A stretch of DNA of 64,000 nt from Bifidobacterium sp. ESL0732 (lineage in GTDB: Bacteria; Actinomycetota; Actinomycetes; Actinomycetales; Bifidobacteriaceae). The DNA is taken from NCBI RefSeq assembly GCF_029395535.1, contig NZ_CP113920.1, positions 744,001 through 808,000 on the forward strand. Reading direction: 5' to 3'. The position numbers and the translations under genes were made by a program. Positions 22,504 through 41,447 of the stretch are shown here, one piece after another (position 1 is the stretch's first letter; the number at the start of each line of letters is the position of its first letter). A model generated the notes under the pieces. The model was not told where the DNA came from, did not search any database, and saw nothing but the letters and a program-made list of their open reading frames with translations.

Positions 22504-22628
22504 TGCCACTTAAAAAGCAAAATATCGATTGAAATTGCATTTTTTGACACAAAATTGCTAAATGAAGTAATTTCATGTTATGCTGAGTAAATGAAATAGC
22601 TAAAATGTCAAAATAAGGTGAGGTATCG

Positions 22629-24032: not shown

Positions 24033-24667
24033 GTAAGAAGCGTTCAGCACCTGCTCACGGACGCAGCGTGCATAGGCGACATCATCGGCTTCGTCGCGAT
24101 CGTTATCTGGTCGTTTGTGGCGGTGAGGTGACCGAGCGGCAATATTTCGAGCATTGCGCGCAGGAATTCAATGTGGACATCAGGTATAAGCCCAAAGTCT
24201 ATAGTCCCTCTGCGGTAGCGAAATATGCTGCTCAGCTAAAGAAGGATGAGGAAGCTGAAGTCGGCGATGATGCCGAAGCGTATAAGAAAGTGTGGGTTGT
24301 GGTCGATGTCGACCATTTTCATGACCATGCCGAAGCTGAAAGGATATGCAAGGCAAACGGTATGAGACTCATCATTTCTAACCCATGCTTTGAGGTTTGG
24401 CTTATTGATCATATCCAGCGGTGTCCCGAAAGCTATAAGTTGACCAAGGATGTGGAGCGATATGCCAGCCAGCTTGGAATCACCAAGGGGCCCAGAAACA
24501 AATATATTGAGTTTTCTGCGATTGAGGGGAAGACGGTCCAGGCGCTGACAAATGCGTCTCGCCATAATAGCAACCGATATCAACGGCAGCAATTGACGGT
24601 GAACTCCGAGCAGGATTACGCGCCGTGGACCGACATGCCGGAAGTCATCGAGGAACTAAGGAAGTAG
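24029..24667 (+). CDS. rloB: RloB-like protein
   Basis: 212 aa with a basic N-terminus (first 30 residues are His/Arg-rich), then VVCGGEVTERQYFEH, VWVVVDVDHF and the family hallmark SNPCFEVWLIDH. This arrangement of a Glu, a DxD and a later Glu resembles a TOPRIM-like nuclease core. It belongs with RloA; comparable ATPase/TOPRIM pairs (AbiL) abort phage infection. Coupled to rloA by ATGA and followed 7 bases later by the HEPN-like gene. Confidence 0.85.
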   Translation: MSKKRSAPAHGRSVHRRHHRLRRDRYLVVCGGEVTERQYFEHCAQEFNVDIRYKPKVYSPSAVAKYAAQLKKDEEAEVGDDAEAYKKVWVVVDVDHFHDHAEAERICKANGMRLIISNPCFEVWLIDHIQRCPESYKLTKDVERYASQLGITKGPRNKYIEFSAIEGKTVQALTNASRHNSNRYQRQQLTVNSEQDYAPWTDMPEVIEELRK

Positions 24668-24674
24668 CGGGATA

Positions 24675-25832: not shown

Positions 25833-25987
25833 AGTTATGGTTTTCTTCACGAATTTATTGTCTTTGAAATATGGCAAATAGGATTCTGATGCGTTGGTTC
25901 TAAGTTGTCTCATTTACAGTACACTAAGTAAATAGAATCTAGTTGGGTCAAGTGTGCCGTTTATCGGCTTTGTGGAGGTTAACATTA

Positions 25988-27556
25988 ATGGCAGCGGAAG
26001 ATAGCAAGAATCAACGCGACGAGTTGCATAAGGCGATTTGGAATATTGCTGAGAAAGAGCGCAACGCCGTCGATAGTTGGGATTTCAAAGCATATATCTT
26101 CTGCTTCTTGTTCTACCGGTTTATCTCCGAAGATCTTGCCGAATATATCGATAAAGGTGAACATGAAACCGGTAATAAAACCTTCTCATACGCTGATTTA
26201 AGCGACGAAGAAGCTGAAATAGCGCGTGAGGATGTGACGAAGGAGAAGGGCTTCTTTATGTTGCCTTCCCAGCTATTCCAGAACGTTGCTAAAAATCCCG
26301 AGAAAGACGACAAACTCAATATAACGGTTAAGAATATTTTTGCTGATATCGAGCGGTCCAGTGTTGGCACGGCTTCGGAAGATGACTTCAAAGGTTTGTT
26401 CGATGATGTCGATGTTACCAGTACCAAGTTAGGTGCCAACCTTTCTGAACGTAACGCAAGGCTTGCTGGCATAATCACCGGCATTCGTGATCTTGATTTC
26501 GGGAACATTCGAGATGCCGATATCGATTTGTTTGGTGACGCATACGAATATCTGATGAATATGTATGCCAGCAATGCCGGCAAATCGGGTGGCGAATACT
26601 TTACACCTCAGGAAGTCGCCGAGTTGCTTGCCCGCATCGTGATAGGGCATCGAACCTACGTTAACAAAGTCTACGATCCAGCTTGTGGATCAGGCTCGTT
26701 GTTGTTACGCTTCGCAAAAATCCTTGGTCAAGAGAACGTTCGTCAGGGCTTCTTCGGCCAGGAAAAGAACCCGACCACGTACAACCTTGCCCGAATCAAT
26801 ATGTTTCTGCACCATATTAATTTCGATCGCTTCGATATTGCACAAGGCGATACACTTATCAATCCAAAACACTGGGATGATCAACCATTCGATGCCATTG
26901 TTTCCAATCCGCCTTATTCGACGCATTGGAAAGGTGACAGCGACCCCACGCTCATCAATGATCCGCGATTTTCTCCTGCTGGCGTGCTGGCGCCGAAGGG
27001 ATATGCAGATTTGGCGTTCACCATGCATATGTTTTCGTGGTTGTCGACAGATGGTACCGCGGCGATAGTTGAGTTTCCTGGTGTGCTCTACCGAGGTGGG
27101 GCTGAAGAAAAGATCAGGCAGTATTTGGTTCAAGGAAATTTTGTCAGTGCTGTTATCCAGCTACCTGTCAATCTTTTCTTTGGCGTCTCTATTGCCACCT
27201 GTATTCTGGTGCTGAGCAAGTCAAAAACCGATGACAAGGTATTGTTCGTCGATGCATCTGAACAATTTGGGCATGTCGGTAACAAGAACAAGCTGATGCC
27301 AGAGAATATCGACAAAATTGCTTCGACGGTAGTTGACCGAACCGAGAAAGAGTATTTCTCCAAGCTGGTAAGTATCGACGAGATTGGCTCTGAAACCAAT
27401 CATTACAATCTTTCTGTTGGCACTTGGATTGAGAAGAAAGACACCAAAGAGAAAGTTGACATCAACGAGCTTAATCAGCGCATCAAAGGTATCGTAAGCC
27501 GCGAAAATGAGTTGCGACAGCAAATCGATGCGATTGTTGCTGATCTGGAGAGTTGA
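25988..27556 (+). CDS. hsdM: Type I restriction-modification methyltransferase subunit HsdM
   Basis: 522 aa. N-terminal helical domain, then the AdoMet motif DPACGSGSLLLR and catalytic NPPY in AIVSNPPYSTHW, which mark N6-adenine methyltransferases. SGGEYFTPQEVAELL is the HsdM signature. ATG chosen at 25988 because GGAGG lies 10 bases upstream and homology begins at once. With HsdS it methylates the target site. A DUF4238 gene starts one base after its stop. Confidence 0.95.
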   Translation: MAAEDSKNQRDELHKAIWNIAEKERNAVDSWDFKAYIFCFLFYRFISEDLAEYIDKGEHETGNKTFSYADLSDEEAEIAREDVTKEKGFFMLPSQLFQNVAKNPEKDDKLNITVKNIFADIERSSVGTASEDDFKGLFDDVDVTSTKLGANLSERNARLAGIITGIRDLDFGNIRDADIDLFGDAYEYLMNMYASNAGKSGGEYFTPQEVAELLARIVIGHRTYVNKVYDPACGSGSLLLRFAKILGQENVRQGFFGQEKNPTTYNLARINMFLHHINFDRFDIAQGDTLINPKHWDDQPFDAIVSNPPYSTHWKGDSDPTLINDPRFSPAGVLAPKGYADLAFTMHMFSWLSTDGTAAIVEFPGVLYRGGAEEKIRQYLVQGNFVSAVIQLPVNLFFGVSIATCILVLSKSKTDDKVLFVDASEQFGHVGNKNKLMPENIDKIASTVVDRTEKEYFSKLVSIDEIGSETNHYNLSVGTWIEKKDTKEKVDINELNQRIKGIVSRENELRQQIDAIVADLES

Positions 27557-27557
27557 G

Positions 27558-28538
27558 ATGACTGCAGCAGGAAAAGTGGCTCCTTCCCCGATAGGTAAGG
27601 CTGAAACTAAAAGACAACACTACGTTCCACGATTTTTCTTGTCGGGCTTTACAAGTAGAAAAGATGGGAAATTTGATGTTTTACGGAGAACCGCTTCTGG
27701 AGTAATTCGTTTGTCTGGTCAAAGGGTTGAAAATGTGGCTGTTGAACGAAATTTATATGAGGTAAAAGTTCCAGAAGCGGAAGACGGAAAGGATAATTTG
27801 TTTCCAAATGGGGTTGAAAACCTGCTATCTCAGTTTGAAGGTTCTTTCTCTGGACGTTTTCGAGTGATAATTGAGGCACTCTTAGAAGCATCAGTTCGGA
27901 AGACTTGGACAGATGCAGAATTAGAAGATATTTGCGATTCGATATCTATTTTTATTGCTGCGCTTTATGTGAGAAACCCAAAAAGCGTCAAAAAAATGCT
28001 TGAAAATGCTAAGAATCTCGTGCCTGTTTTAGAACAGTCTCAACTTGGAACATCTGATGCACTGGAACAGTTATATTCGGAAACGATGGGCTCGGATTGG
28101 TCTGAGAAAATTCATTTGACGCCGGAAATGGCATCGCAAGTTCTCGGATTATCAGAGTTAGTATCTCCGTCAAAAGCAGGTATAGAAAAGGGTAATAAGT
28201 ATCCTCTAATAGAATATGCCGAGTATCTAAGAAATTGTAGTTTCCAGTTTTTAACAACGGCGGTCGATCAGCCATTTATTGGAATATCTGAGCCCCATTT
28301 TGAGGGAGTAAGAGATTCTGGACGTTCATATGGTTTGCTTTATTTTCCTCTCAGCTCCAGATTGGCTGTCCTCATAGTTGATGATGATAAACATACCTTT
28401 GAAAAGAAGTCACTTAATAGGAAACAATTACGACTTTTCAATAGAGCCGCATTAGTAGGAGAAGAGTGGGATTGGGCTTTCTGCAGTAGGGGAGACTATC
28501 TTGATTCATTCAGGAAAAGGAATAGCGACAATGAGTAA
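27558..28538 (+). CDS. DUF4238 family protein nested between hsdM and hsdS
   Basis: 326 aa beginning MTAAGKVAPSPIGKAETKRQHYVPRFFLSGFT; KRQHYVPRFFL is the DUF4238 hallmark, possibly a metal or nucleic-acid-binding segment. The central part is helical and no transmembrane segment is seen. It starts one base after hsdM and its stop overlaps the hsdS start by 8 bases, so it is translated as part of the restriction operon. Function unknown; family members occur often near defence genes (general knowledge, not checked here). Confidence 0.8.
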   Translation: MTAAGKVAPSPIGKAETKRQHYVPRFFLSGFTSRKDGKFDVLRRTASGVIRLSGQRVENVAVERNLYEVKVPEAEDGKDNLFPNGVENLLSQFEGSFSGRFRVIIEALLEASVRKTWTDAELEDICDSISIFIAALYVRNPKSVKKMLENAKNLVPVLEQSQLGTSDALEQLYSETMGSDWSEKIHLTPEMASQVLGLSELVSPSKAGIEKGNKYPLIEYAEYLRNCSFQFLTTAVDQPFIGISEPHFEGVRDSGRSYGLLYFPLSSRLAVLIVDDDKHTFEKKSLNRKQLRLFNRAALVGEEWDWAFCSRGDYLDSFRKRNSDNE

Positions 28539-29703
28539 AATTGACGAGATACTTGAGCAGCTTTGTCCTGATGGGGTTGAGTATAGAGCTTTAGCTGATG
28601 TATTTGAAACGAGGAATGGATATACACCTTCGAAAAAGAATTCTGAATATTGGACGGATGGTTCTGTTAATTGGTTCCGAATGGAAGATATTCGTGCAAA
28701 TGGACATATTTTGTCTGATTCAATTCAAAAGGTGTCTCACTCAGCAGTGAAAGGTGGAGAGCCTTTCGCGGCTGATTCGTTGATTGTAGCAACGTCTGCA
28801 ACAATTGGTGAGCATGCTTTAGTTACTGTTCCATTCCTTTGTAATCAGCGTTTTACCTGTCTGACAAGAAAGGCTGAATTTGTCAATAAATTGGATATGA
28901 AATTCTTTCTTTACTATGCAGATTTGCTTGATAAATACTGTCTGGAACATACGAATAATGGCGGTTTTGCGTCGGTTTCTATGACTGCTTTTCGTGACTT
29001 TCCAGTTGCTATACCACCGTTGGAAATTCAGCAGGAAATTGTGCGAATTCTGGATTCATTTACTAAGCTTGAGTTGGAGCTTGAGTTGGAGCTTGAGTTG
29101 CGCAAAACACAATATGATTATTATCGTAATCGTCTTATTGATTTCGCAGAAGATACTTCGTTGCTAGAACTAGGTGAAGTAGTTTTTATGAAAGCCGGGA
29201 AACATATAGCTGGTTCTGAAATAAAAGACGTTCAATCACAAGAGAATCCATATCCGTGTTATGGAGGGAATGGTATACGAGGTTACGTTTCCGAGTTCAA
29301 TAATCAAGGTGAGAAAGTTCTTATTGGGCGGCAAGGGGCATTATGCGGTAATATTTGCAGGGTGTCTGGTAAGTTTTATGCAACTGAACATGCTGTTGTA
29401 ACTACGTGTAATGAGCACATACTTCCTGCCTATGCATTTCATATGCTAACTGCTGCTAATTTAAATCAATACAAATCGCAAGGCGCTCAGCCAGGTTTAG
29501 CAGTTTCGAATTTAAAGAAAATTAAAATCCAGGTTCCTTCAATTGAGCAACAAAGACATATTGCAAATGTTCTTGATCAATTCAGCGCATTAACGACGTC
29601 GCTAACCGATGGTTTACCTGCTGAGATTCAGGCCAGGCATCAACAGTACGAGTATTATCGGGATAAGTTACTTGATTTTCCAAGAAAGAAGACTGAGGCA
29701 TGA
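28531..29703 (+). CDS. hsdS: Type I restriction specificity subunit HsdS
   Basis: 390 aa with two target-recognition domains. The first runs from about residue 10 to 150, followed by the central conserved helix IPPLEIQQEIVRILDSF, then a repeated LELE stretch and LRKTQYDYYRNRLI. The second domain ends with QVPSIEQQRHIANVLDQF and a matching distal helix. Each domain reads half of a bipartite site. The central helix is lengthened by a 12-base repeat, listed separately. Stop overlaps hsdR as ATGA. Confidence 0.94.
   Translation: MSKIDEILEQLCPDGVEYRALADVFETRNGYTPSKKNSEYWTDGSVNWFRMEDIRANGHILSDSIQKVSHSAVKGGEPFAADSLIVATSATIGEHALVTVPFLCNQRFTCLTRKAEFVNKLDMKFFLYYADLLDKYCLEHTNNGGFASVSMTAFRDFPVAIPPLEIQQEIVRILDSFTKLELELELELELRKTQYDYYRNRLIDFAEDTSLLELGEVVFMKAGKHIAGSEIKDVQSQENPYPCYGGNGIRGYVSEFNNQGEKVLIGRQGALCGNICRVSGKFYATEHAVVTTCNEHILPAYAFHMLTAANLNQYKSQGAQPGLAVSNLKKIKIQVPSIEQQRHIANVLDQFSALTTSLTDGLPAEIQARHQQYEYYRDKLLDFPRKKTEA
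29068..29100 (+). repeat. 12-bp tandem repeat in the hsdS spacer helix
   Basis: CTTGAGTTGGAG occurs twice in tandem (29068-29079, 29080-29091) followed by nine bases of a third copy. It encodes LELE units in the helix that sets the distance between the two recognition domains. Confidence 0.95.
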
Positions 29704-32700
29704 TCGTTGATGACCAGATAACCTCTGCAACGGAACATTTGGACAAGACATATTCCATCCTGCTGGAAGGGCCGGAGGAAACAGTCTGTACTGAAGCTCC
29801 GAGCGTTCCGAGCAATTCTGCTGCCTACCAGTCTGAGGCGGAGCTGGAGGCTCAGCTTATCAAGCAGTTGTGTGCTCAGGGATATCAGCGAATTTTGGTC
29901 CATACCCAAGATGAGATGGTTCTTAATCTGCGTCATCAGATTGAAAATCTTAATGGTTTTGTATTTATCGATGCGGATTGGGAAACTTTTTTCCAAACGA
30001 AAATCGCAAACGCTTCCGATGGCATCGTTGAGAAGACTCGTATCATCCAGCATTCGCCGGTGATTGATTTTACGACCAGTGATGGTGTCCTTCATAATGT
30101 CATGCTTCTTGACCGTAATCATATTCATCACAATCAGCTGCAGGTACTCAACCAATATGAAGCCAATGAAGGCACCCACAAGAATCGTTATGACGTCACC
30201 ATTCTTGTCAATGGACTACCGCTTGTCCATATTGAACTCAAACGGCGTGGAGTTGATCTCCGGCAGGCGTTCAACCAAATCGAACGTTACCAACGGGAAA
30301 GCTTCTGGTCTCAATCAGGACTTTTTGAATATGTTCAGCTTTTCATTATTTCGAATGGTTCTCTGACCAAGTACTACTCCAACACAACGCGTTGGCAGAA
30401 AACCCACGATGAACGAGGCAAAAAGACCAGTGCTTCCTATCAGTTCACAAGCTGGTGGACTGATGCCAAAAATCATCGAATTATGGACCTTGTGCCCTTT
30501 ACTGCTTCGTTCCTTTCTCGTGGTACGCTGCTGATGATATTGACGCATTATTGCGTGCTTGATGTCGACGACAATCTTCTAGTCATGCGTCCATATCAGA
30601 TATGCGCAACCGAACGTATCCTCAACCGAATCCTGATTTCTGAGATTAGTAAGAAACGTCTTGGGACCAGTGCGGCAGGTGGCTATATTTGGCACACCAC
30701 TGGTTCAGGCAAGACGCTTACCTCATTCAAGACCGCTATTCTCGCTTCCCAGATGGAGGGAATCAACAAGGTACTGTTTGTCGTGGATCGTAAGGATCTC
30801 GATTATCAGACAATGAAGGAATACAATAAATTCCAACCCGGAGCTGTGAACGGTTCAACGAATACTGCGGCATTAACGGAAAACCTTGAATCGAACGATC
30901 CTGACAAGCGTATCTGTGTTACCACTATCCAGAAATTAGCCGTCTATCTTTCGCATGCGCAGAAGGGCAACCCGTTATTTGCTGAGCATGTTGTTTTCAT
31001 ATTCGATGAATGCCATCGGTCTCAATTCGGTAAGATGCATAAGGCTATAACTTCGGCATTTAAGAATTACCATCTGTTCGGGTTTACGGGGACGCCTATT
31101 TTTGCAAAGAACGCACAATCTGGCGGAGACCCCGAACTGAAGACGACTCAGCAAGCATTCGGTGACTGCTTGCATAAATATACTGTTGTCAACGCGATTG
31201 ACGATGGCAACGTTTTGCCGTTTAAAGTGGATTATGTCAAGACGTTTAGTCATAAGAACGGTCGTCCTGATGAACAAGTCGAAGGCATTGATACCAATAC
31301 AGCTTGGCAAAATCCGAAGCGTATCCGGCTTATTTCTCAATATATACTTGACCACTATGCTCAGAAAACCAAGAGAGATTCGGCCTATCAATACAAAGAT
31401 GCTTACCACATGGGGTTCAACTCGATTTTGGCTTGCGACTCCATCTCATCAGCTAAGGCATACTATACCGAGATTCAATCGTTACTTCCTGACTATCCTG
31501 AGCTGAATCTTAAGGTGGCAACTATCTTTACCTATGCTCCGAATGGTGAGGAAGACGATGCCCAGGGCATACTGACCGAAGAACAGATGGACATTGCTGG
31601 CATGAAACCGGCTGATCGAGATTTTCTTGACGCGGCCATCGCTGATTACAACAAGATGTTCAAGAGCAATTTCGGTACTGATGGTAAGGGATTTGACAGA
31701 TATTACAAGGATGTTTCTCGGCGTATGAAAAACCGGGATTTGGATTTGCTCATCGTCGTTGACATGTTCCTTACTGGATTTGACGCCAAGACACTCAATA
31801 CGTTGTGGGTCGATAAGAATCTCAGGCTTCATGGATTGATTCAAGCGTTTAGCCGAACCAATCGTATTCTTAATTCAGTCAAGACTTTCGGCAATATCGT
31901 TTGCTTCCGTGATTTGTCGGATGAGGTGGACGAGGCGCTTGGGCTTTTCGGCGATCCTAATGCGGCCGGCATTGTTTTGCTTAAGCCATATGAGGATTAT
32001 TTCACGAAATATAGCGAAGCTTTGGCACACTTGCGCGATGATTTTCCGTTGGATGGTGATTTCTCTGGATTAGGGGAGAAGGCGGAAAAGGATTTCATCA
32101 AAACGTTTGGTGCTCTGCTCAGGCTTCGGAATATTCTTACTTGCTTTGATCAATTCGCTGACGATGACCCTTTGAAAGGTCATGATCGCGAACTACAGGA
32201 TTATCAGAGCCATTATCTGGACCTTGCCGATAAATACAAGCGACGTGACCAAGGAGAACGTGTCAGCATCTGCGACGATTTGGTCTTTGAGATGGAGCTT
32301 GTAAAACAAGTTGAAGTCAACATCGACTATATCCTCATGTTGGTCGAGCAATATCACGGTGAGAACATTGAGGATAAGCAAATAGCCGATACGATTCGTA
32401 GCTCTGTGGCATCTTCGCCGGAATTGCGAGACAAGGCTGATCTTATCGATGCGTTCCTTCAACTGGTCGGCTTTGGCGACCAAGACCCGATCATTCTTCT
32501 TAAGTCGCTCACCACTGAGGAACGACATGAAGTGATTTCAGGCCAGTGGAAGACCTTCGTTGCCGATTCCATGGAGCATGAACTCGATGCAATAATTTCG
32601 AGCCACAATCTGAAACCAGATGAAACCAAGGCATTCATGTCAGAAGCTTTCATTTCTGGCAGAGTGACTGATGAAGGCACAGCAATCCGCCGCATCATGA

Positions 32701-32831
32701 AGCCAATCTCCCGTTTCGCCAAGGACAATCCCTACGCCGAGCAGCGTCAGGATGTGGTCGATTCCTTGACTGCGTTCTACAACCGCTACAAGAGTCTGAC
32801 GCCGGTGTATCCAAACGCTGCTGTAGATTGA
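29700..32831 (+). CDS. hsdR: Type I restriction endonuclease subunit HsdR
   Basis: 1043 aa. The N-terminal nuclease domain has the RYDVTILVNGLPLVHIELKRRG segment with the E-x-K of a PD-(D/E)xK active site. The SF2 motor follows with TTGSGKT, DECHRSQFG, GFTGTP and a second lobe with LDLLIVVDMFLTGFDAKTLNTL and QAFSRTNR. It translocates DNA and cuts unmethylated phage DNA with HsdM2S. The frame is intact over the full family length, so the restriction system is probably functional. Confidence 0.95.
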   Translation: MIVDDQITSATEHLDKTYSILLEGPEETVCTEAPSVPSNSAAYQSEAELEAQLIKQLCAQGYQRILVHTQDEMVLNLRHQIENLNGFVFIDADWETFFQTKIANASDGIVEKTRIIQHSPVIDFTTSDGVLHNVMLLDRNHIHHNQLQVLNQYEANEGTHKNRYDVTILVNGLPLVHIELKRRGVDLRQAFNQIERYQRESFWSQSGLFEYVQLFIISNGSLTKYYSNTTRWQKTHDERGKKTSASYQFTSWWTDAKNHRIMDLVPFTASFLSRGTLLMILTHYCVLDVDDNLLVMRPYQICATERILNRILISEISKKRLGTSAAGGYIWHTTGSGKTLTSFKTAILASQMEGINKVLFVVDRKDLDYQTMKEYNKFQPGAVNGSTNTAALTENLESNDPDKRICVTTIQKLAVYLSHAQKGNPLFAEHVVFIFDECHRSQFGKMHKAITSAFKNYHLFGFTGTPIFAKNAQSGGDPELKTTQQAFGDCLHKYTVVNAIDDGNVLPFKVDYVKTFSHKNGRPDEQVEGIDTNTAWQNPKRIRLISQYILDHYAQKTKRDSAYQYKDAYHMGFNSILACDSISSAKAYYTEIQSLLPDYPELNLKVATIFTYAPNGEEDDAQGILTEEQMDIAGMKPADRDFLDAAIADYNKMFKSNFGTDGKGFDRYYKDVSRRMKNRDLDLLIVVDMFLTGFDAKTLNTLWVDKNLRLHGLIQAFSRTNRILNSVKTFGNIVCFRDLSDEVDEALGLFGDPNAAGIVLLKPYEDYFTKYSEALAHLRDDFPLDGDFSGLGEKAEKDFIKTFGALLRLRNILTCFDQFADDDPLKGHDRELQDYQSHYLDLADKYKRRDQGERVSICDDLVFEMELVKQVEVNIDYILMLVEQYHGENIEDKQIADTIRSSVASSPELRDKADLIDAFLQLVGFGDQDPIILLKSLTTEERHEVISGQWKTFVADSMEHELDAIISSHNLKPDETKAFMSEAFISGRVTDEGTAIRRIMKPISRFAKDNPYAEQRQDVVDSLTAFYNRYKSLTPVYPNAAVD

Positions 32832-32894
32832 GCTTTAATAAAAATAGATTTCGCATTATAGAAGAAGCAGGGGAATCAAGGTCGGATACAGAGA

Positions 32895-33845
32895 TTATTC
32901 TATTTCCTGAGTAGCATTTTTCTGTTCCTTCAAGAGTTGAAGAATGCTCTTTACGGGTAGATAAGTTGAATACTTTCTAATCAGCCGTTGATAATAATCT
33001 GGTTCGATATTTTTAAGATAAGTTAAATAGCCTAATATTTCATCAGGCTCTCCCTCTCCATTTTTTATATAAGTATATAAGGCTTTTTTAATCTTTTTCT
33101 TCCATCTAGTGCCAGTTGTTAGACGATTATGTCTTTGAATTGTAATGCCAGTTACTTTAATATGTGATTTGCCTGAGTAAAAATGTGTTTTTCTATAATT
33201 TGGTATAAAATCATGTTCTTCAATATAAGAAAAAATGTCGCTCTGAACTTGTGGTTTGATGAACTTAGAGGACGAAATGTAAATGTCATCAGAATATCTG
33301 GTGTATATAAGTTTCGAATTTTCGCAGTAATTACCAACTTCATTATCAAAGTCATACATGATTGCATTAGATAAGTGAGGAGATGATGGTGCTCCCATAC
33401 AAGCTTTATGATTTCTGAACAGTATTTTGTCTAGCGTGGCTTCCAGGTCTGGGTATAAAAGCCCTTTAGCTTTAATTTCTGAGATATGTTGATTAAGAAG
33501 TGCATTAAATGAATTATCGGTAATTGAAGGGAAAAAATTTCTTATATCTGTATGAAAAAGATGCGAGGCTTTTATATGAGCTTGTGCAGTTTTTATGGTA
33601 GAGTTCCCAGATTCATATGCCATCGCGTATTTTGAAATAGGGAAGAAATAAAAAAACTTTTTTACGGCCCAATATTGAAGTAGCTTTAGGGTTTCACTGG
33701 GTTCTCGAATGATTCTATAGCCACCAGTCTTTTTAGGGATTTTATAAGACCGATATAAAGTGTCTGCGTTTATAACGGTCGATTGTACCAAATCAATAGA
33801 AATCTTTAAATCTTCGGAAATAGAGTTGACTAAGGAATCAGGCAT
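32895..33845 (-). CDS. Retron reverse transcriptase
   Basis: 316 aa. RT motifs in order: GYRIIREP, HTDIRNFFPSI with the first catalytic Asp (residue 100), GAPSSPHLSNAI, YSDD (184-187; the YxDD box) and VTGITI (231-233), the VTG that marks retron RTs. TAQAH (86-90) sits where retrons have NAxxH. There is no maturase or endonuclease domain, so it is not a group II intron RT. The start ATG overlaps the effector's stop by 8 bases (ATGCCTGA). It would reverse-transcribe the msd RNA from the 2'-OH of a branching G to make msDNA. Very AT-rich, unlike the core genome. Confidence 0.93.
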   Translation of the reverse strand: MPDSLVNSISEDLKISIDLVQSTVINADTLYRSYKIPKKTGGYRIIREPSETLKLLQYWAVKKFFYFFPISKYAMAYESGNSTIKTAQAHIKASHLFHTDIRNFFPSITDNSFNALLNQHISEIKAKGLLYPDLEATLDKILFRNHKACMGAPSSPHLSNAIMYDFDNEVGNYCENSKLIYTRYSDDIYISSSKFIKPQVQSDIFSYIEEHDFIPNYRKTHFYSGKSHIKVTGITIQRHNRLTTGTRWKKKIKKALYTYIKNGEGEPDEILGYLTYLKNIEPDYYQRLIRKYSTYLPVKSILQLLKEQKNATQEIE

Positions 33846-34881
33846 TTCCCATCACACTTTCATCTTTAAAACGGTATTTTCTTTCAAGGATATTGACACG
33901 TTGTTGCTGTAATGCGTTATAAGTACTAATTGTCCGATTAAAAAGAAAAAGCTGATTCTTGTCTAGAATCTCAGTGGAATAGTAATAGTCGATTTTTCTG
34001 GAATGATTTTTACTTGTCGGAACGGTTAATGTTTTTTTGCTTGCGAGATTTGCAGACTCTAAAAAAGCTAAAATATGTTTTATTTTAATTCTTTTACCCG
34101 CCCCATTTTCATTATCCATAATTAAACCTATATCCTTCTTGTACCCTTTTACTTCGCGATAAAGCATCATTAAGTCTGAAAGGCTAATAGGTGACGCTAT
34201 TAATAGTAAATCCATGATTTCATGTACAAATGAATCCAATCGAGCCTGGGTCGGATTGGACTTTGGATTATTTAGTTTCCGATTTTTGAGCAGTGTACTT
34301 AATCTATACTTGAGTGTAGTTTGTACATTCAAACTCAATATTGAGGTATCATCATCCTTTACAGGTGCGTATAGAATTGATGCACCAGCATTTCTTGATT
34401 TTTCGATAGGTCCTTGAACGATAAAAGATTTATTGTTCTCATATTCCTTTTCAACCAAGATGACCAGTTTCTTATTTAATTCCTCTGAACTGTGCGAGAA
34501 AGCACCAAGTTCACAAATAGTGCCTGCACTTTCAACTGGAAGAATTATGAGATCGCATACCTCGGCAAGAAACTCTTCAAAAGTAAGTAAATCTAAATTT
34601 TGTTTTTCATTATAAAAATCTTCTGAAAAAACTATATTAATTTTTGAATTTTGCCTTGTTATAAAGTCAGCAATGTTATAACGGTTCGTATTTGATTGTT
34701 CGGAACGTGGAACACGATTGCCGTTTTTATCTAAAATTTGTTTGCCACAGATAAAAACAAAAGAATGTTCGAATGAGGGCTTTTTCATACCGTCGTTACC
34801 GGGGTCGAGGTGTGCGGAAAGATTCTCAACTACAGAATCGGGATAGATATTTGGATTAAGAACCCTTTTCTCTTTCCGCAT
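33838..34881 (-). CDS. Retron effector, nucleoside deoxyribosyltransferase-like (St85/type II family)
   Basis: 347 aa. HSFVFICGK (about 40-47) and LAEVCDLIILPVESAG followed by TICELGAF (about 105-128) match the NDT/SLOG-like fold of type II retron effectors: a nucleotide-binding strand and the ExxG...ELGAF loop. The C-terminal third looks like a helix-turn-helix DNA-binding region (about 230-310). AAGGAG eight bases upstream fixes the ATG, which lies 20 bases after the a2 repeat of the RNA. In the characterised relatives the RT-msDNA complex holds the effector inactive until a phage disturbs it. Assignment to the family is by motif and context. Confidence 0.85.
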   Translation of the reverse strand: MRKEKRVLNPNIYPDSVVENLSAHLDPGNDGMKKPSFEHSFVFICGKQILDKNGNRVPRSEQSNTNRYNIADFITRQNSKINIVFSEDFYNEKQNLDLLTFEEFLAEVCDLIILPVESAGTICELGAFSHSSEELNKKLVILVEKEYENNKSFIVQGPIEKSRNAGASILYAPVKDDDTSILSLNVQTTLKYRLSTLLKNRKLNNPKSNPTQARLDSFVHEIMDLLLIASPISLSDLMMLYREVKGYKKDIGLIMDNENGAGKRIKIKHILAFLESANLASKKTLTVPTSKNHSRKIDYYYSTEILDKNQLFLFNRTISTYNALQQQRVNILERKYRFKDESVMGNA

Positions 34882-34901
34882 CGCCTTGGCTCCTTACAGA
34901 G

Positions 34902-35045
34902 AAACGTCTACGACGGGGCCGGATTGTTTGTGACCGACTCCGAAGACTTGGAAGAGTCGGTCACAAACAATCCGGCCCCGTCCTTGCCTTACATTCCTTC
35001 GTCCGAAATTGCATTCAGAACTTAACTACTCTTAGCTAGACGTTT
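34902..35045 (-). ncRNA. Retron msr-msd RNA
   Basis: 144-base RNA on the - strand directly upstream of the effector and RT. The a1 repeat AAACGTCTA (35045-35037) is perfectly complementary to a2 TAGACGTTT (34910-34902). Directly after a1 comes AGC, whose G (35036) matches the branching guanosine context of known retrons. The msr part has a 6-bp hairpin (35002-35019, loop of 6). The msd part is a perfect 28-bp hairpin (34913-34940 with 34954-34981) with a 13-base loop. The predicted msDNA equals the + strand from about 34911 to about 34990, linked to G35036. Confidence 0.9.
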
Positions 35046-35050
35046 TGCCT

Positions 35051-35059
35051 ATTCTAGCA
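35051..35059 (-). promoter_or_regulatory. Extended -10 promoter of the retron
   Basis: TGCTAGAAT read on the - strand: TG-N plus a five-of-six -10 box. No good -35 is seen, as expected for an extended -10. A start about 7 bases downstream falls at the first bases of a1, which is where the retron RNA should begin. Confidence 0.65.
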
Positions 35060-35654
35060 CATTAAGAAGACTTTTCATTATGAATGGATAAAATGTTACT
35101 TCATTTCAGCGGTACGAGCATAGTTTGCACGATTAGGATAGTGTATCGCTATGAATTAGATAACAGAATAATTAAGATTCTCATTTCTTCGTTTGTGAAT
35201 ATTTATTTTTAACTGTCGTTTATTTTTAACTAATTGTAAGTTAGCTTGTTGAATTTAATATGATAGTTGGGTGTGAGCAGTGATTTCTAAAGTCGTTTCA
35301 TTCAGCACTAGAAACGTCGGTTCGACAGGCGGTATACATTTCTGTAGGTTTGCTTATTTCACTAGTTCCACAGTAAATCTTCAAGTAAGTTATAGCTTAT
35401 TTGTTCCTTTTCTTAAAAGATGGGGATGGTTTCGGTACTGAGTTTAGGATCGTCTACTTGCGTTGCTGCGGTCCAAGCATTGCAACGCAATCTTCTTATC
35501 TAAAAATTTTTTTGATTGTGATTGAATAATTTGTGCATAAAAACTATTAAGAGACCTCGAGAGTCTGTAATTTGATTTGCACAAAAGAGTATTTTTGATT
35601 ATAATATAAAATATTTGTTATGGCTTATGAAGTAAAATGTCAAAGGAGATTAAA
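35060..35654. other. AT-rich intergenic stretch beside the retron
   Basis: About 600 bases without a gene. A 9-bp inverted repeat TTGCGTTGC (35458-35466 with 35482-35490) is followed by a T-rich tract and could be a terminator; otherwise I see no coding or structured element. Its composition marks it as foreign. Confidence 0.5.
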
Positions 35655-36287
35655 ATGAATAATCCATTAGGAAATTTGAAGCCTCTTAAAGCGCAAATGG
35701 AAAGCAAGAACTGGTCTATTGATGCATTTGATTTCCGATATAAAAAAGAAAAATATATTGTCCTTGTAAAATTGTATGAAAAGGATGAGAGAAAACCCAA
35801 ATATGCTTTACTTAAATTGGAGTTTTGCAAATCTGATGATATTACTGACTCTCTTGAAACTCCAGCTAATATTCAAGGACTCATGATTGATGCAAAAAAA
35901 ATACGAGAATTTTTTGGGATAGAATATTCAGAAAATCTAGGAGAAATTTTAGCACAATTTGCAACATTACTCGGAGGCTATATTCCGATAGAAATAGGTA
36001 AGAAAACAGAAGAGCAAAAGAACGCAATGGTGCATTCTCTCAGCATTTCGGATCGTGAAGACCCGAATGCAATATATTGTTATAAAGCTCAGAGAAATGG
36101 GAAAGGGAGTAATGGTGAACAACGTCATAGAACTCATTTTAACGGAGAGAAAACTAAGCTTTTACGACCGATTTTGTTTGATAAATTGAATGAGGATCCA
36201 ACGATTAGTTTTTGTTATTCCACTGATTTAACCGACTCGAAAACTGATGAAGAGATTATAGCTAACTTTGGGGATAGACATAATTGA
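35655..36287 (+). CDS. Hypothetical protein, possibly DUF6037 family
   Basis: 210 aa, starting at the ATG six bases after AAGGAG; an earlier in-frame ATG overlaps this ribosome site and is less likely. Features: SKNWSIDAFDFRYKKEKYIVLVKLYEK near the N-terminus, DSLETPANIQGLMIDAKKIREFFGIEYSENLGEI in the centre, no membrane helices and no catalytic motif I recognise. The text pattern reminds me of DUF6037 proteins, which I recall only loosely. It stands alone between the retron and a decayed alcohol dehydrogenase, in strongly AT-rich DNA. Confidence 0.6.
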   Translation: MNNPLGNLKPLKAQMESKNWSIDAFDFRYKKEKYIVLVKLYEKDERKPKYALLKLEFCKSDDITDSLETPANIQGLMIDAKKIREFFGIEYSENLGEILAQFATLLGGYIPIEIGKKTEEQKNAMVHSLSISDREDPNAIYCYKAQRNGKGSNGEQRHRTHFNGEKTKLLRPILFDKLNEDPTISFCYSTDLTDSKTDEEIIANFGDRHN

Positions 36288-36321
36288 TTGTGTGTTCTTC
36301 ATTCAGAGGGATGTACATACC

Positions 36322-36713
36322 GTGCCGTTCGCGCTCGGCCATGAGGACGCAGGTGTCATCAGCGAGGTCAGTGAAGGTATCGATGGTTTCAAGGTCGGCG
36401 ACCGAGTCGCAATCTGCTCACTGCTTCGGATGGTTCTCCTTGTGGCGGTTTCGACGGTGGTTATGATGAGAAGATTGCGATCAGCGCTTGCGTCACTTAT
36501 CTGCTTGGTGCCACCCTCTACGTCGCCGAGGTCAGAGAGTCCGCATGGCCAGTGGCCAAGAACCTGGGCGCCATCGCCGGCGTCTACGAGCTCATGGCGT
36601 TCGGCAAGCTCGACCTGGTCACCTCCAAGATTTCGTTCAGCGAAATTCCCAAAGATTTGAAGAGGTTGTAGGCCGGCGACATCCACGATTGTCTTGTTGC
36701 TGTGTATGAGTGA
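36322..36713 (+). pseudogene. Decayed zinc-type alcohol dehydrogenase, copy 1
   Basis: Fragments colinear with the intact adh further on: VPFALGHEDAGVISEV and GFKVGDRVAIC, then after a frameshift CGGFDGGYDEKIAIS, YLLGATLYVAEVRESAWPVAKNLGA, and VYELMAFGKLDLVTSKISFSEIPKDLKRL ending at a TAG, with AGDIHDCLVAVYE after it. Two internal deletions remove most of the catalytic and nucleotide-binding parts. G+C-rich, unlike its surroundings. Confidence 0.85.
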
Positions 36714-36837
36714 CGTTTGAATAGACAACTAAAATGTCTATGGTAGATAGACGCTTGGATATAGTAGATTAACAGGGTAGATAATTGAATCTCTGATCTA
36801 AGCTGTAACGAGGTTTCAAACATTCAAAGGACTTACT

Positions 36838-37401
36838 ATGATGCTAAACGTCGCGGATGACGAACTCGGTGAAGGTCCATTACGTGTACTGTGTGCTCGT
36901 TTGATTTGGCAGCATAAAATCCATGAAAAGCAAACTGATATATATGTTTTTCATTATAAATTTTTTAATTGTTTATCTATTGGAGCTACTGCTTTGACGG
37001 GTTGTGGTATCTTTAGCACCTTTTTAAACCAAGCAACTTGGATTCGAGTTTGTTCTTTGTTGACTACGGCGATAGCTCTATTCTCGAGTTTATATACGAA
37101 AAGTATTGATTATAATCAATTGATCATTAAGGAAAGAAAGTCGGCCGAAGCCTTTTTAAGGCTTCGTGATAGAAGTTTTAGTCTGTTATATAATGTGAAA
37201 CATGAAACTATTGAGTTACCTGATTTAGAGAAAGAGCTTAACGGCATTTTTAATGATTATCACCGCCTTTGTGCAGAAGCTCCTAGAATCACTGACCATG
37301 CCAATGATAAAGCTAGAAAAGCGCTTCAAAAAGGTTCTGGCTCCGACTATAAAAATTCTGAAATAGATGAATTATTGCCAGAATATTTACGTCAATCCTA
37401 A
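36838..37401 (+). CDS. SLATT-like protein with two membrane helices
   Basis: 187 aa; AAAGGA six bases before the ATG. Layout fits SLATT domains (SMODS- and SLOG-associated two-helix effectors): a short amphipathic N-terminus (LIWQHKIHEKQ), two adjacent membrane helices (about 45-62 and 68-86) separated by a tight turn, then a long charged helical region (KSIDYNQLIIKERKSAEAFLRLRD...). SLATT proteins are thought to form pores that kill the cell when a nucleotide-signal partner triggers them. No cyclase or SLOG gene is next to it; the nearest SLOG-like protein is the retron effector about 2 kb away. Assigned by shape only. Confidence 0.65.
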   Translation: MMLNVADDELGEGPLRVLCARLIWQHKIHEKQTDIYVFHYKFFNCLSIGATALTGCGIFSTFLNQATWIRVCSLLTTAIALFSSLYTKSIDYNQLIIKERKSAEAFLRLRDRSFSLLYNVKHETIELPDLEKELNGIFNDYHRLCAEAPRITDHANDKARKALQKGSGSDYKNSEIDELLPEYLRQS

Positions 37402-37550
37402 GATTTGTCTTGATTACAAGCTTTGTTGTTTTAAGGTGGCCTGTTTTTAGGTATAAGTCGATAAGCAGATTGATGCTTCTTATAAGCATCGTCTTTACTT
37501 TGCGACAAATGAAGTATGATAACGTCCGGTTTGTTGCGCACTTTTGGTTT

Positions 37551-38787
37551 TCAGCCTTGATTACCTTGGCGCGGTGTTTCAACCGTGTCTTTTATTATCG
37601 GTTCGAGCAGTGACATGTCCTGGTAGCGGCGTTTGGGCCATTTCTGGGTGACGTGCCTGATTCGTGCGGTGACGAGTATGAGGGCGCTGCGGCCGTCGGG
37701 GAACTGGCCGACGATCCTTGTCCTGCGGCGTATCTCGAGGTTGAGGCGTTCGATCATGTTGTTGGTGCGGATCAGCCTCCAATGCTCCATCGGGAATTCC
37801 GGCAGCTGGTAGGTCGTCGCCTCGCCGATGCCCTCGCACAAGCAGGAGGCCGCCTCCCCGAGCTTCATCCAATCGAGTTCGACGGCGACCGATTCGGCCT
37901 TGGACAACGTCTTGTCGCGGTCCTCCATGGCGAACACGGCCTTGAGCTCGGCCGCCGTCTTGCGTTTCCGACGGGGCACCTTGGCAAGGACGTTGCGCTG
38001 GAAGTGGACCATGCACCGCTGGTAGCGGGCCCCGGGGCAGCAGCTCGCCCACGGCACGCACAGCCCCGGGGTTGCGGTCGCCGACCGCCAGGCGCACGCC
38101 GGAAAGGCCGCGGCCGATCATCGTGCGGATGAACGACTCCCAGCTGGCCGTGTCCTCCTTCATGCCCTCGGCTATGCCTATGACCTCGCGCCGGCCGTAG
38201 TCGCCGACGCCGATGGCGACGAGCGCGCTGGAGTTCTTCGGCTTCACGGCCCAGCTCCGTTTCGGCCAGATGCCGTCCATGAACACGTACGGGACGTCCC
38301 GTTCCAGCGGCCTGTTCCGCCATGAGTCGATGCCCTTGTAGACCCTCTTCAGATCGTCCGAGAGAGTCTGGGGCGGCATGCGGTCGCCCCAGAGCGCTTG
38401 GCTGATGTCATCGACCTGACGGGTCGACATGCAGTTGAAGTACATGCTCATGAGCGCCTCCTTGACGCTCGACTCGCGCGTCCGGTAGTGTTGGAGGACC
38501 GCGGACTCGAACATGGCGCCCTTGAGCTTCGGCACCTTCACGCTCATGCTGCCGGCCTTCACCGTCAGCCTCCGATCATAATGCCCGGCGCGATAGGTCT
38601 TCCGGCCTTCCCTGCGCTCGTATCGGGCGGCACCGGCCACCTAGTTGCCCTCGGCATTGAGCATCGTGTTCAGGATCTCCTCGACCTTCGAGGAGACGAG
38701 CCTGTCGAGCTCGGCCTCGAACTTGGACTCGTCGACCTGTATGATTCTGCTGGCGGGGATGGTTCCCGCCAGCTTTACAGTCAGTGA
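37551..38787 (-). pseudogene. IS256-family mutator-type transposase, disrupted
   Basis: Recognisable from RAGHYDRRLTVKAG, VPKLKGAMFESAV, the DDE-domain segment VFMDGIWPK and IGIAEGMKEDTASWESFI, and at the end RTNNMIERLNLEIRRRTRIVG and QFPDGRSALILV. Broken twice: an in-frame TAG (38643-38641) after MLNAEGN, just before GAARYER, and a one-base insertion in the CCCCGGGG tract near 38030-38037, after which the protein continues in another frame from GARYQRCMVHFQRNV. No usable start codon is seen upstream of the TAG. Not expected to be active. Confidence 0.88.
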
Positions 38788-38820
38788 CTATTGATCTGGC
38801 GATTAAAAATCGTACACAGA
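37551..38820 (-). mobile_element. Remnant IS256-family insertion sequence
   Basis: Carries a broken IS256-type transposase. The upstream end reads TCTGTGTACGATTTTTAATC on the - strand (38820-38801), a typical terminal repeat of such elements. A matching end is not visible beyond the transposase stop, so that side is probably truncated. A run of C follows the left end (38832-38841). High G+C against an AT-rich background. Confidence 0.75.
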
Positions 38821-38843
38821 CAAGGGGCCACGCCCCCCCCCTA

Positions 38844-39686
38844 TCAAATCCCAAAACCCAATTTGCGCAAACTACCGGACACTATCCTGACATTATCATT
38901 TTCAAATATTCGGTCCTTACATATTTGAATAAGATAAGTGACCGTTAGAAAAGTAAACAATATTGTCATTTGACTTTGTAATGTGTCTCTCGGATGTAAA
39001 CAATAGTCAATTACACATAGGTTGAAGAAAATATTGACTACAGCAAAAGGCCAAGTGTTGAAAAACCAAAATTCTTGTGTGTTATTTTTTGAAGGGAAGA
39101 TAAAATCATAAAATGCATATAGAGAAACAAGCAATTCAAGAAGAGTAATAAATAAATAAATAATATTAAAATTCTCCCAATTATTTCCAAAATTAATCTG
39201 CAGTGTCTTATCGAAACTATCTTTTGGTTTTCCCTTCACAGGTATCGACATCGTTGCACATAATACGAAAGTTAAGAAGATAGATAACATGTGAAAAAGT
39301 GCAACTACTTTTCTCTGTCTTCCGCCGGTAAGGCAGAGAATATACATCAGCAATACGCTTACAATCGTAATTAAATAAATAGACGCAAAAATGAAACCAT
39401 ACTCAAAGATATAGTGAAAACCATTAAAAACAATATAATTTACAGTTGTTTCGAGTAAGAAAAAGCAAAGGAGCAGAATTAAATCTAAAATTACGTTTGA
39501 AATAGACTTTATTTTTTTATGTGTTGTATCTTCAGGGATAGAGGGCCAGAGTAGAGCTTTGATTGCCCCTGAGTGATTTCTGTTATATATGAGTAAACTG
39601 GCACCTGCGACTATAAAAATACATAGGGTCGTTGATGAAGATCCAATCCAATAAGCGGCAAACCAGTGAAATAAATCTAAATCCAT
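38844..39686 (-). CDS. Multi-helix membrane protein of unknown function
   Basis: 280 aa with about seven hydrophobic segments (for instance TTLCIFIVAGASLLIY near 20, VILDLILLLCFFLL near 66, YLITIVSVLLMYILCL near 105, MLSIFLTFVLCATM near 132, IIYLFITLLELLVSLYAF near 176, and two more before the end). No motif that I know. Very AT-rich and transcribed against its neighbours, between the IS remnant and a decayed alcohol dehydrogenase. The start is uncertain because there is no clear ribosome site. Confidence 0.6.
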   Translation of the reverse strand: MDLDLFHWFAAYWIGSSSTTLCIFIVAGASLLIYNRNHSGAIKALLWPSIPEDTTHKKIKSISNVILDLILLLCFFLLETTVNYIVFNGFHYIFEYGFIFASIYLITIVSVLLMYILCLTGGRQRKVVALFHMLSIFLTFVLCATMSIPVKGKPKDSFDKTLQINFGNNWENFNIIYLFITLLELLVSLYAFYDFIFPSKNNTQEFWFFNTWPFAVVNIFFNLCVIDYCLHPRDTLQSQMTILFTFLTVTYLIQICKDRIFENDNVRIVSGSLRKLGFGI

Positions 39687-39967
39687 ATTTTTTAGTCTAT
39701 TGGATTTATACTGAAAATCAAGAATTAATTCAAATTTTGATTTTAGGACATTATTACAAGAATTTGGTCACACTTTTGCAGGGTGAGTGAAGCTTCTAAA
39801 ACTATTTGACGAAATATACGGAGATTTACATTTAAGTAACTTGTCGTAAATGCTGAAAGCAGAGATACGCGAGCCTACTGAAGAACTTGTCAAGATTATG
39901 ATTGAAGGTTAAAATATTTCTATTTTAGTCTCTGCCTTTTCTGATGAGGGCATCGATTGTGTTTTAG

Positions 39968-40280
39968 TCATTGATTTTGCAGGCTTTGGCACTACTATGT
40001 CCAGGCGTGCAAGGCATGCGAGACGCACGGCACCGTCGTGCTCGTGGGCATGGGCCGGCTGGAAAGCACCATCAACACCAAGGCGCTGATCATGAGCCAG
40101 GTCAACCTGCTCGGCTCCAACGGCGGCACGAAGGACGACATCGCCGGCGTCTACAGGCTTATGGAGTCCGGTGACCTCGACCCGGTCACCACCAAGATTT
40201 CCTTCGATGAGATTCCCGAGGGCTTGAAGAAGCTCCAGGCCGGCGACGTCCGTGGCCGTCTCGTCGCCGTTTACGAGTGA
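39968..40280 (+). pseudogene. Decayed alcohol dehydrogenase, copy 2 (C-terminal third)
   Basis: Starts mid-protein at VIDFAGFG, shifts frame, then runs GTVVLVGMGRLESTINTKALI, NLLGSNGGTKDDIAGVYRLM and LKKLQAGDVRGRLVAVYE to a normal stop. It aligns to the last third of the intact adh downstream. The first part of the gene is absent; AT-rich island DNA abuts the break. Confidence 0.85.
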
Positions 40281-40307
40281 GATTTACCAGCGGTAATGAT
40301 TGGGATT

Positions 40308-40357
40308 AAACCGTGTGGAGACGTCGAAGGCAAGACTTCGCATACGGTTTCTTTTTT
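40308..40357 (+). terminator. Rho-independent terminator after adh copy 2
   Basis: Outer stem AAACCGT (40308-40314 with 40344-40350), inner stem CGAAG (40325-40329 with 40336-40340), followed by CTTTTTT. Confidence 0.75.
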
Positions 40358-40499
40358 GGGGTAAACATGAAAAAAATTTAGAGTCCCAACATCCCATCCT
40401 GATACTGTTAACGCTCACAACGATTACGGCAATTTCGGCATTTTGCGGTTTCTGTTCCTGCTTACACTGGGAAATGAAAGACCAGAGAAAGGGTCGATA

Positions 40500-41447
40500 A
40501 TGAAGTCATGGATGTTTTATGGCACAAATAAGCCGTTGAAGCTGGAGGAGGTGCCGGAGCCGCACGCCGCGGCCGATGGAGTCGTCATCGATGTCAAGGC
40601 CGCGGGGCTGTGCCACACCGATGTCGGCTGCATTCGCGACCCGGGCTGGATGTCGCTGTGCAAGCCGGTACCTTTCGCGCTTGGCCATGAGAACGCCGGT
40701 GTCATCACCGAGGTCGGCAGTGACGTCAAAGGCTTCAAGGTCGGAGATAGAGTTGCATTGTGCCCGACGACTTCCGCCGGTACGCCCGGGTTTGCTTTCG
40801 ACGGCGGGTTCGGCCCGAAGATCGCCATTGGCGCTGAGGCGCTGGTACGTATCCCGGATTCGATTGATTTCGTCAAGGGTGCTGCCGCGACCGATGCTGG
40901 CATGACCTCGTATCATGCGGTGGTTGTGCAAGGCGAAGTCAAGAAGGGCGAGAACGTCGGCATCATCGGCGTCGGCGGATTGGGCCAGATCGGCGCTCGC
41001 GTCGCCCATCTGCTCGGAGCCAACGTCTATGTGGCAGAGGTCAAGGAATCCATCTGGCCGATGGCCAAGGAGCTCGGCGCCGTCGACGTCAAGAAGTCCA
41101 TCAAGGAGTTCAAGGACATTCAGTTCGACAAGATCATCGATTTCGCGGGCTTTGGCGACACCACTGCCGATGCGGTTGACGTCATCAAGCGCGACGGCAC
41201 TGTTGTACTCGTGGGCATGGGCAAGCTGGAAAGCAACATCAACACCAAGTCGCTCATCATCAACGAGTGCACCCTGCGCGGCTCCAACGGCGGCACCAAG
41301 GAAGACATTGAAGGCGTCTACAAGCTCATGGCCAATGGCGAACTCAACCCTGTGACCACCACCATCCCGGCTTCCAAGATCCCTGAGGGGTTGCAGCAGC
41401 TGGAAGATGGAGATGTCCGTGGTCGCCTCGTCGCCGTCTACGAGTGA
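40500..41447 (+). CDS. Zinc-type medium-chain alcohol dehydrogenase, intact copy
   Basis: 315 aa from the ATG at 40500 with AAAGGG upstream. Catalytic zinc ligands are visible in GLCHTDVGC and GHENAG; the Rossmann loop is GIIGVGGLGQIGARVA. The four-Cys structural zinc lobe of classical alcohol dehydrogenases is missing, which explains the short length. It oxidises alcohols or reduces aldehydes with NAD(P)H; substrate unknown. Ends 106 bases before the next gene with a strong terminator. It is the only intact one of three related copies in this stretch. Confidence 0.88.
   Translation: MKSWMFYGTNKPLKLEEVPEPHAAADGVVIDVKAAGLCHTDVGCIRDPGWMSLCKPVPFALGHENAGVITEVGSDVKGFKVGDRVALCPTTSAGTPGFAFDGGFGPKIAIGAEALVRIPDSIDFVKGAAATDAGMTSYHAVVVQGEVKKGENVGIIGVGGLGQIGARVAHLLGANVYVAEVKESIWPMAKELGAVDVKKSIKEFKDIQFDKIIDFAGFGDTTADAVDVIKRDGTVVLVGMGKLESNINTKSLIINECTLRGSNGGTKEDIEGVYKLMANGELNPVTTTIPASKIPEGLQQLEDGDVRGRLVAVYE

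What the first reader, a model, noticed from the sequence alone, without database searches (positions are those of the whole stretch)
32895..35059. Complete retron with an NDT-like effector in a Bifidobacterium-type genome
On the - strand an extended -10 promoter, an msr-msd RNA, an effector with an NDT/SLOG-like ELGAF loop and a retron-type RT (YSDD, VTG) form one compact operon; effector and RT overlap by 8 bases. The order RNA-effector-RT in cis is that of type II/St85-like retrons. AT-rich DNA and placement between a type I restriction operon and other accessory genes point to acquisition as a defence module. Seen: motifs, overlaps, repeats. Inferred: phage defence.
Basis: partly seen in the sequence, partly recalled or inferred. 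Interest (0 to 1): 0.85.

Follow-up and report, generated by a model that had tools for sequence, protein, structure and literature searches.

The report
Complete type II-A retron in Bifidobacterium
This stretch holds a complete, known kind of bacterial anti-phage module (a retron, which makes a small RNA-linked DNA thought to hold a toxic enzyme in check), found here in an uncommon host, a bifidobacterium, at a spot where relatives carry other defence genes.

Summary
On the minus strand there is a three-part operon: a retron RNA (35045-34902), an effector (34881-33838) and a reverse transcriptase (33845-32895). Both proteins pass the curated NCBIfam cut-offs for the St85 retron RT and effector, and PADLOC's best models are type II-A for both. 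The effector's predicted fold matches the Retron-Eco1 (Ec86) effector best; its ELGAF glutamate falls on the residue changed in the inactive Ec86 effector. The RNA is well supported: its 29-bp msd stem is the longest perfect hairpin in the window, and the a1/a2 stem covaries across 10 loci on an alignment made without regard to pairing (97.3% of cells paired, 8 of 11 pairs changed on both sides). It is rare in the host genus: 2 of 112 genomes, its own included, hold the effector. It lies in AT-rich DNA in a variable defence site. Most likely mechanism, inferred from Ec86/Sen2: RT-msDNA restrains an NAD+-cleaving effector until phage infection. A new member of a known kind; host and defence site are the only mildly new points.

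The parts
35051..35059 (-). extended -10 promoter element TGCTAGAAT, no clear -35
   Evidence: read from the sequence; five bases lie between it and a1; not tested further
34902..35045 (-). retron RNA (msr-msd), 144 nt from a1 to a2
   Evidence: fold z -8.0; a1/a2 stem and position kept in relatives
35037..35045 (-). a1 arm AAACGTCTA; the next base, G at 35036, is the putative branching guanosine
   Evidence: a1 is followed directly by G in 11 of 11 loci examined, against a mean of 2.0 and a maximum of 5 of 11 in 60 shuffled sets; covariation
34912..34982 (-). msd hairpin: perfect 29-bp stem, 13-nt loop
34902..34910 (-). a2 arm TAGACGTTT
33838..34881 (-). effector: N-terminal NDT-like domain with ELGAF (E124) and a C-terminal part; St85/Ec86 family
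   Evidence: NF038232 146.2 bits, cut-off 100; PADLOC NDT_II-A; PDB 7v9x by sequence; folds 8qbk/8qbl/7xjg
32895..33845 (-). retron reverse transcriptase, St85 family / type II-A
   Evidence: NF038233 257.9 bits, cut-off 235; PADLOC RT_II-A best; solved retron RTs by sequence

Best explanation
This is a complete type II-A (St85/Ec86-like) retron. One transcript, starting near a1, carries the msr-msd RNA followed by the effector and RT genes. The RT recognises the folded RNA, primes from the 2'-OH of the guanosine just after a1 (35036), and copies the msd hairpin into an RNA-linked hairpin DNA (msDNA). RT, RNA and msDNA bind the NDT-like effector and keep it inactive, probably in an Ec86-like assembly. 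When a phage alters the msDNA or the complex, the effector is released or activated and cleaves NAD+ (or another nucleotide) using E124, so the infected cell stops before phage are made. Shown here: both protein families, operon order, RNA anatomy with covariation, predicted fold and the conserved glutamate. Inferred from Ec86 and Sen2: msDNA production, inhibition, NAD+ cleavage, trigger, phage defence.
For: Curated cut-offs passed by both proteins; PADLOC II-A models best for both; RT_II-A matches 10 of 10 aligned RTs with the lowest best E-value of the families listed. The predicted effector fold (mean pLDDT 77.8, pTM 0.80) gives 3 PDB matches at E <= 0.001, all Ec86 effectors, with Z 12.1-14.1 against at most 9.8 for the other rows shown. 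In the alignment E124 falls on a position that is E in the wild-type Ec86 chain and A in 8qbl, titled 'inactive effector (E106A)'; E124, L125, G126, A127, F128 are invariant in 11 effectors. RT residues Y184, D186, D187, T232, G233 are invariant in 10 RTs. The a1/a2 stem, on an alignment of untrimmed upstream DNA: 97.3% of cells paired (shuffles 83.0%, 0 of 500 as high), 8 of 11 pairs with changes on both sides (1 of 500), slid versions at most 50.9% paired. Relatives carry other defence genes at the site. PMC12405507 (passage) says Retron-Eco1/Ec86 forms filaments and defends by NAD+ hydrolysis; PMC10264812 (passage) describes RcaT retrons as tripartite toxin-antitoxin systems.
Against: No experiment: msDNA, toxicity, NAD+ cleavage and phage defence are not shown. 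Effector identity to Ec86 is about 20% over the fold. The a1/a2 stem of this locus alone is within chance, and one of the five covariation measures, further pair types, does not exceed the shuffles (13 against 13.2, 356 of 500 as high). Rfam's STnc400 match is below its gathering score (37.2 against 80), and a miRNA family matches the same hairpin better. The RT also scores well against the type I-A model (197.3 bits).
Confidence: 0.9

Rival explanations
1. A retron by descent that is no longer active as defence (decaying island cargo).
For: The neighbourhood holds broken genes: an adh fragment at 36316-36717 and its remainder at 39967-40284, with a SLATT_4 gene and a Mutator-family transposase between them. 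The window RT has a long end branch, 1.33 against a median of 0.49.
Against: Both ORFs are intact with conserved catalytic residues; the RNA keeps a perfect 29-bp stem and the a1/a2 stem.
Confidence: 0.07
2. A working retron whose effector acts as a stress toxin-antitoxin module rather than mainly against phages.
For: RcaT retrons are described as tripartite toxin-antitoxin systems (passage in PMC10264812).
Against: It lies beside a type I restriction operon in a site that holds other defence genes in relatives; Ec86 is an antiphage system (PMC12405507 passage).
Confidence: 0.12
3. Not a retron: a group II intron or other RT next to a chance hairpin.
For: A bifidobacterial 'retron-type' polymerase has been reported as typical of group II introns (PMC4121622, passage).
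Against: The group II intron model scores 36.4 bits (cut-off 300) against 257.9 for the St85 retron RT; RNA covariation; adjacent effector of the matching family.
Confidence: 0.01

Closest known systems
Retron-Eco1 (Ec86), type II-A, effector structures 7v9x/7xjg/8qbk/8qbl
   Same: Same effector fold and ELGAF glutamate; homologous RT. The order RNA-effector-RT in Ec86 is recalled.
   Different: About 20% effector identity over the fold; effector 347 aa against 307 aa. The Ec86 RNA was not compared here.
Retron St85 (Sen2, RcaT), name-giver of NCBIfam retron_St85_RT and STM3845_fam
   Same: Both proteins pass the curated cut-offs of these families; the same three-part order (recalled).
   Different: No Salmonella protein or RNA was compared directly here.
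Retron of Bifidobacterium aemilianum XV10 (L021 / L018)
   Same: Sister RT, 49% identical, support 98/99; effector 38%; same anatomy, a1/a2 arms differ compensatorily.
   Different: Different neighbours: a NUDIX-like ORF upstream and an unsearched 126-aa ORF downstream, judged by eye; no DNA match to the window's hsdR in that genome.
Type II-A retrons of uncultured Bacillota-type MAGs (L022-L031)
   Same: Effectors 29-35% and RTs 36-40% identical; same RNA layout.
   Different: Shorter effectors (308-313 aa by the coordinates) and an msr-msd sequence of their own shared among them.

Membership tests
Retron (any type) | Retron-clade reverse transcriptase with YxDD and VTG motifs | tested here: met
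   NF038233 over cut-off; RYSDD and KVTG in the window; Y184, D186, D187, T232, G233 invariant in 10 RTs. No tree with all retron and other RT clades was built.
Retron (any type) | msr-msd RNA with outer a1/a2 stem and a G directly after a1 | tested here: met
   9-bp stem; G follows a1 in 11 of 11 loci examined; covariation on an unfitted alignment
Retron (any type) | Production of msDNA (2'-5' branched RNA-DNA) | not testable with these tools
   needs nucleic-acid extraction
Type II-A (St85/Ec86) retron | NDT-like effector of the St85 family encoded with the RT | tested here: met
   NF038232 146.2 bits, cut-off 100; fold match to the Ec86 effector
Type II-A (St85/Ec86) retron | Order RNA, effector, RT on one strand | tested here: met
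   window; effector then RT in all 11 loci (RT cut by the contig end in L028). Upstream RNA visible in all 11, its 5' end cut off in L024; in L028, L029 and L031 the hairpin script ranked another hairpin first, and the msd is seen in the alignment.
Type II-A (St85/Ec86) retron | Catalytic glutamate of the effector (E106 in Ec86) | tested here: met
   E124 aligns with it; invariant in 11 effectors
Type II-A (St85/Ec86) retron | NAD+ cleavage, filament formation, phage defence | not testable with these tools
   inferred from Ec86 (PMC12405507 passage)
Group II intron RT | Score over the TIGR04416 cut-off | tested here: not met
   36.4 bits against a cut-off of 300

The most novel reading that the evidence does not exclude
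The msDNA of this retron senses a different chemical mark from that of Ec86. For Ec86 a paper title reports activation by DNA methylation (title seen only in a reference list). Here the msd hairpin has no GATC but has overlapping GGCC/CCGG sites in its stem. It lies beside type I restriction genes, and a cytosine methyltransferase gene takes the same site in a relative. The duplex could be bait for phage or host methylation, or for a restriction-modification enzyme, making the retron a guard of the neighbouring restriction system.
Probability: 0.06. Interest if true: 0.6.

Novelty: new member of a known kind. Interest (0 to 1): 0.3.

Why it matters
It documents a complete, intact-looking type II-A retron in a bifidobacterium, a group in which my few literature searches turned up no retron study (not exhaustive). 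A 144-nt RNA with its RT from a high-GC Gram-positive could widen the set of retrons for DNA production in such hosts. The wider point is the variable site between an SNF2-type helicase gene and an adh gene, which carries different defence genes in different bifidobacterial species.

Tried and rejected
Rfam at gathering score finds no retron RNA (only a tRNA). With lax thresholds the hairpin matches miRNA families and STnc400, all below their gathering scores, so this is not used as evidence. That STnc400 lies at the Salmonella St85 locus is recalled and untested.

Viral contigs: 99 stretches matched a pattern, none encodes a relative. No DNA match in phage records. By protein, 14 phage records hold a stretch like the effector: 13 Klebsiella records covering 36% of it, and one unannotated faecal contig covering 96% at 28.7% identity. 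In plasmids 5 records match the effector and 145 the RT, all under 60% identity. No mobile carrier close to the window was found in these collections.

The a1/a2 stem on single loci does not beat shuffles well (window 15 of 100, L021 6 of 100; 0 to 6 of 60 per locus). 28 of 110 cross-locus arm pairs also reach 9 bp, as the MAG arms resemble each other. In one search the sequences had been cut at arms found by pairing, which leans towards the stem; I repeated the count on an untrimmed alignment and got the same 97.3% and 8 of 11. Over the 11 loci together the mean stem score is 10.95 against at most 8.55 in 60 shuffled sets. The shuffle controls do not keep relatedness. The match of 11 of 11 relatives to the effector family is partly circular, as the loci were found with the effector.

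Rows dropped: L027 (same top hairpin and upstream as L026) from alignments; L024 from the a1/a2 counts (contig ends inside the RNA); L028 from the RT alignment (contig ends inside the RT); L019 and L020 from the DNA alignments and pair counts (distant), L020 also.

Defence site: of five stretches fetched, cargo proteins of three (G083, G090, G091; 10 proteins) were scanned against PADLOC; those of G085 and G092 were not, and the G092 stretch shows no adh match. One of the 10 proteins (348 aa, G083) had no PADLOC match.

Literature: 'retron' with 'Bifidobacterium' gave 42 papers, 20 listed, many of them only 'retronasal'-type word matches by title. I saw passages of two: a bifidobacterial genome with a group II intron-type polymerase, and a survey of actinobacterial prophages, where retrons are named for another genus. 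Searches (0 papers; 12 of 41 listed) showed no title on bifidobacterial retrons. Passages of PMC12548924 report type II-A retrons in other bacteria. The main type II-A papers (Mestre 2020, Wang 2022, Bobonis 2022, Carabias 2024, Khan 2024) are not held. I therefore do not claim a first report.

Full report
What is there. On the minus strand, 35059-32895, the sequence holds an extended -10 element, an RNA with a strong hairpin, a 347-aa ORF and a 316-aa ORF that overlap by 8 bases.

Proteins. The downstream ORF is a retron reverse transcriptase: NCBIfam retron_St85_RT 257.9 bits against a cut-off of 235, PADLOC RT_II-A first of 53 families, and 16 distinct PDB sequences at E <= 0.001, 12 of them named as retron proteins, three named only RNA-directed DNA polymerase and one a group II intron RT. 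The upstream ORF is the St85-family effector: 146.2 bits against 100, PADLOC NDT_II-A, Ec86 effector by sequence. Pfam alone would have missed it, giving only a PPK2 match under the cut-off. In the sequence alignment, E124 of the ELGAF loop falls on the residue that is E in the wild-type Ec86 chain and A in 8qbl, titled 'inactive effector (E106A)'. E124 to F128 are invariant in 11 effectors.

RNA. The msd stem is a perfect 29-bp inverted repeat, the longest perfect hairpin (loops of 3-20) in the window; the 180-nt region folds at z -8.0, 0 of 200 shuffles as stable. The a1/a2 stem is 9 bp in the window, which alone is within chance. Ten other loci (nine of the 11, plus L019) were examined with the same search: a1 is followed directly by G in 11 of 11 including the window, and the arms span 144-176 nt and end 20-56 nt before the effector. 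In 60 sets of shuffled sequences a G follows the best arm in 2.0 of 11 on average and 5 at most, and the mean stem score never exceeds 8.55 against 10.95 observed. On an alignment of untrimmed upstream DNA of 10 loci (L019 left out), which was not fitted to the arms, the 11-pair stem has 97.3% of cells paired against 83.0% in shuffles (0 of 500 as high), 8 of 11 pairs with changes on both sides (1 of 500), a covariation score of 0.624 against 0.305 (0 of 500), and at most 50.9% pairing when slid; the number of further pair types does not exceed the shuffles (356 of 500 as high) (the same picture on the trimmed alignment). This is the strongest evidence that the RNA is a retron RNA and not a terminator or chance hairpin.

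Relatives and origin. In the genus 2 of 112 genomes, the window's own included, hold the effector; in the family 2 of 189 pass the RT cut-off and 10 of 189 match at E <= 0.001; in an even draw of the phylum 3 of 396, own included, hold the effector family. The second Bifidobacterium is B. aemilianum XV10, whose RT is sister to the window's (49% identity, support 98/99). The ten RTs of the window, B. aemilianum and the MAGs group apart from two other RTs of the phylum, G395 and G479 (root at midpoint, for drawing only). Eleven loci came from genome contigs out of 56 pattern matches: B. aemilianum, eight titled Clostridia, one Bacillota and one 'uncultured bacterium'. This sparse spread fits horizontal acquisition, which I infer. 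The species of the window was not determined.

Surroundings. GC is 32-37% from 33 to 36 kb against mostly 52-62% in the outer parts of the window. The retron lies after, and convergent with, a type I restriction operon (hsdM 25943-27556, a DUF4238 gene, hsdS 28501-29703, hsdR 29700-32831); upstream of it a DUF6037 gene points the other way. In G083 the same operon (hsdR 87% identical as DNA) is followed not by a retron but by a 156-aa ORF, a 348-aa ORF without family match, an ATPase with GHKL domains and a DNA cytosine methyltransferase, and then the adh gene. In G090 and G091 the interval before adh holds a type II restriction pair with SIR2 and HerA genes, and IIG-like restriction genes with a Shedu (SduA) gene. 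The retron thus sits in a variable defence site; two further fetched stretches (G085, G092) were not scanned.

Mechanism. By homology to Ec86 and Sen2 the RT-msDNA complex should restrain the effector until infection, and the effector should then cleave NAD+. PMC12405507 (passage) states filament formation and NAD+ hydrolysis for Eco1/Ec86; PMC10264812 (passage) describes RcaT retrons as tripartite toxin-antitoxin systems. None of these steps is shown for this locus.

Verdict. The finding is real, correctly read and well supported, but the kind is known. Interest is modest: an uncommon host, a clean RNA with covariation, and a defence hotspot.

Noticed in passing
window 22503-40443: The interval between an SNF2-type helicase gene (18286-22503, named by eye) and adh (40443-41447) looks like a defence hotspot: in G083, G090 and G091 it carries other restriction genes, SIR2 with HerA, or Shedu.
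   Followed up: partly
window 36316-40284: An extra adh copy is split: fragment 36316-36717, remainder 39967-40284; between them a SLATT_4 protein gene (36838-37401), a Mutator-family transposase that seems broken in frame (37551-38640, by eye) and an unmatched membrane-like protein (38844-39686).
   Followed up: partly
window 22629-25832: An AAA_21 ATPase gene overlaps a RloB-like gene, followed by a 385-aa ORF without Pfam match: perhaps a further defence module.
   Followed up: partly
window 27507-28538: A DUF4238 gene lies between hsdM and hsdS; G083 has an ORF in the same place (L040 6519-7499) within a stretch that matches at 83% DNA identity.
   Followed up: partly
window 35637-36287: DUF6037 gene divergent from the retron across about 580 bp of AT-rich DNA; no PADLOC match.
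   Followed up: no
L019 and L020: Two other type II-A retrons of the phylum (G395, G479) each lie near an ORF that reads by eye like an RloC/PrrC-type ATPase; not searched by profile.
   Followed up: no
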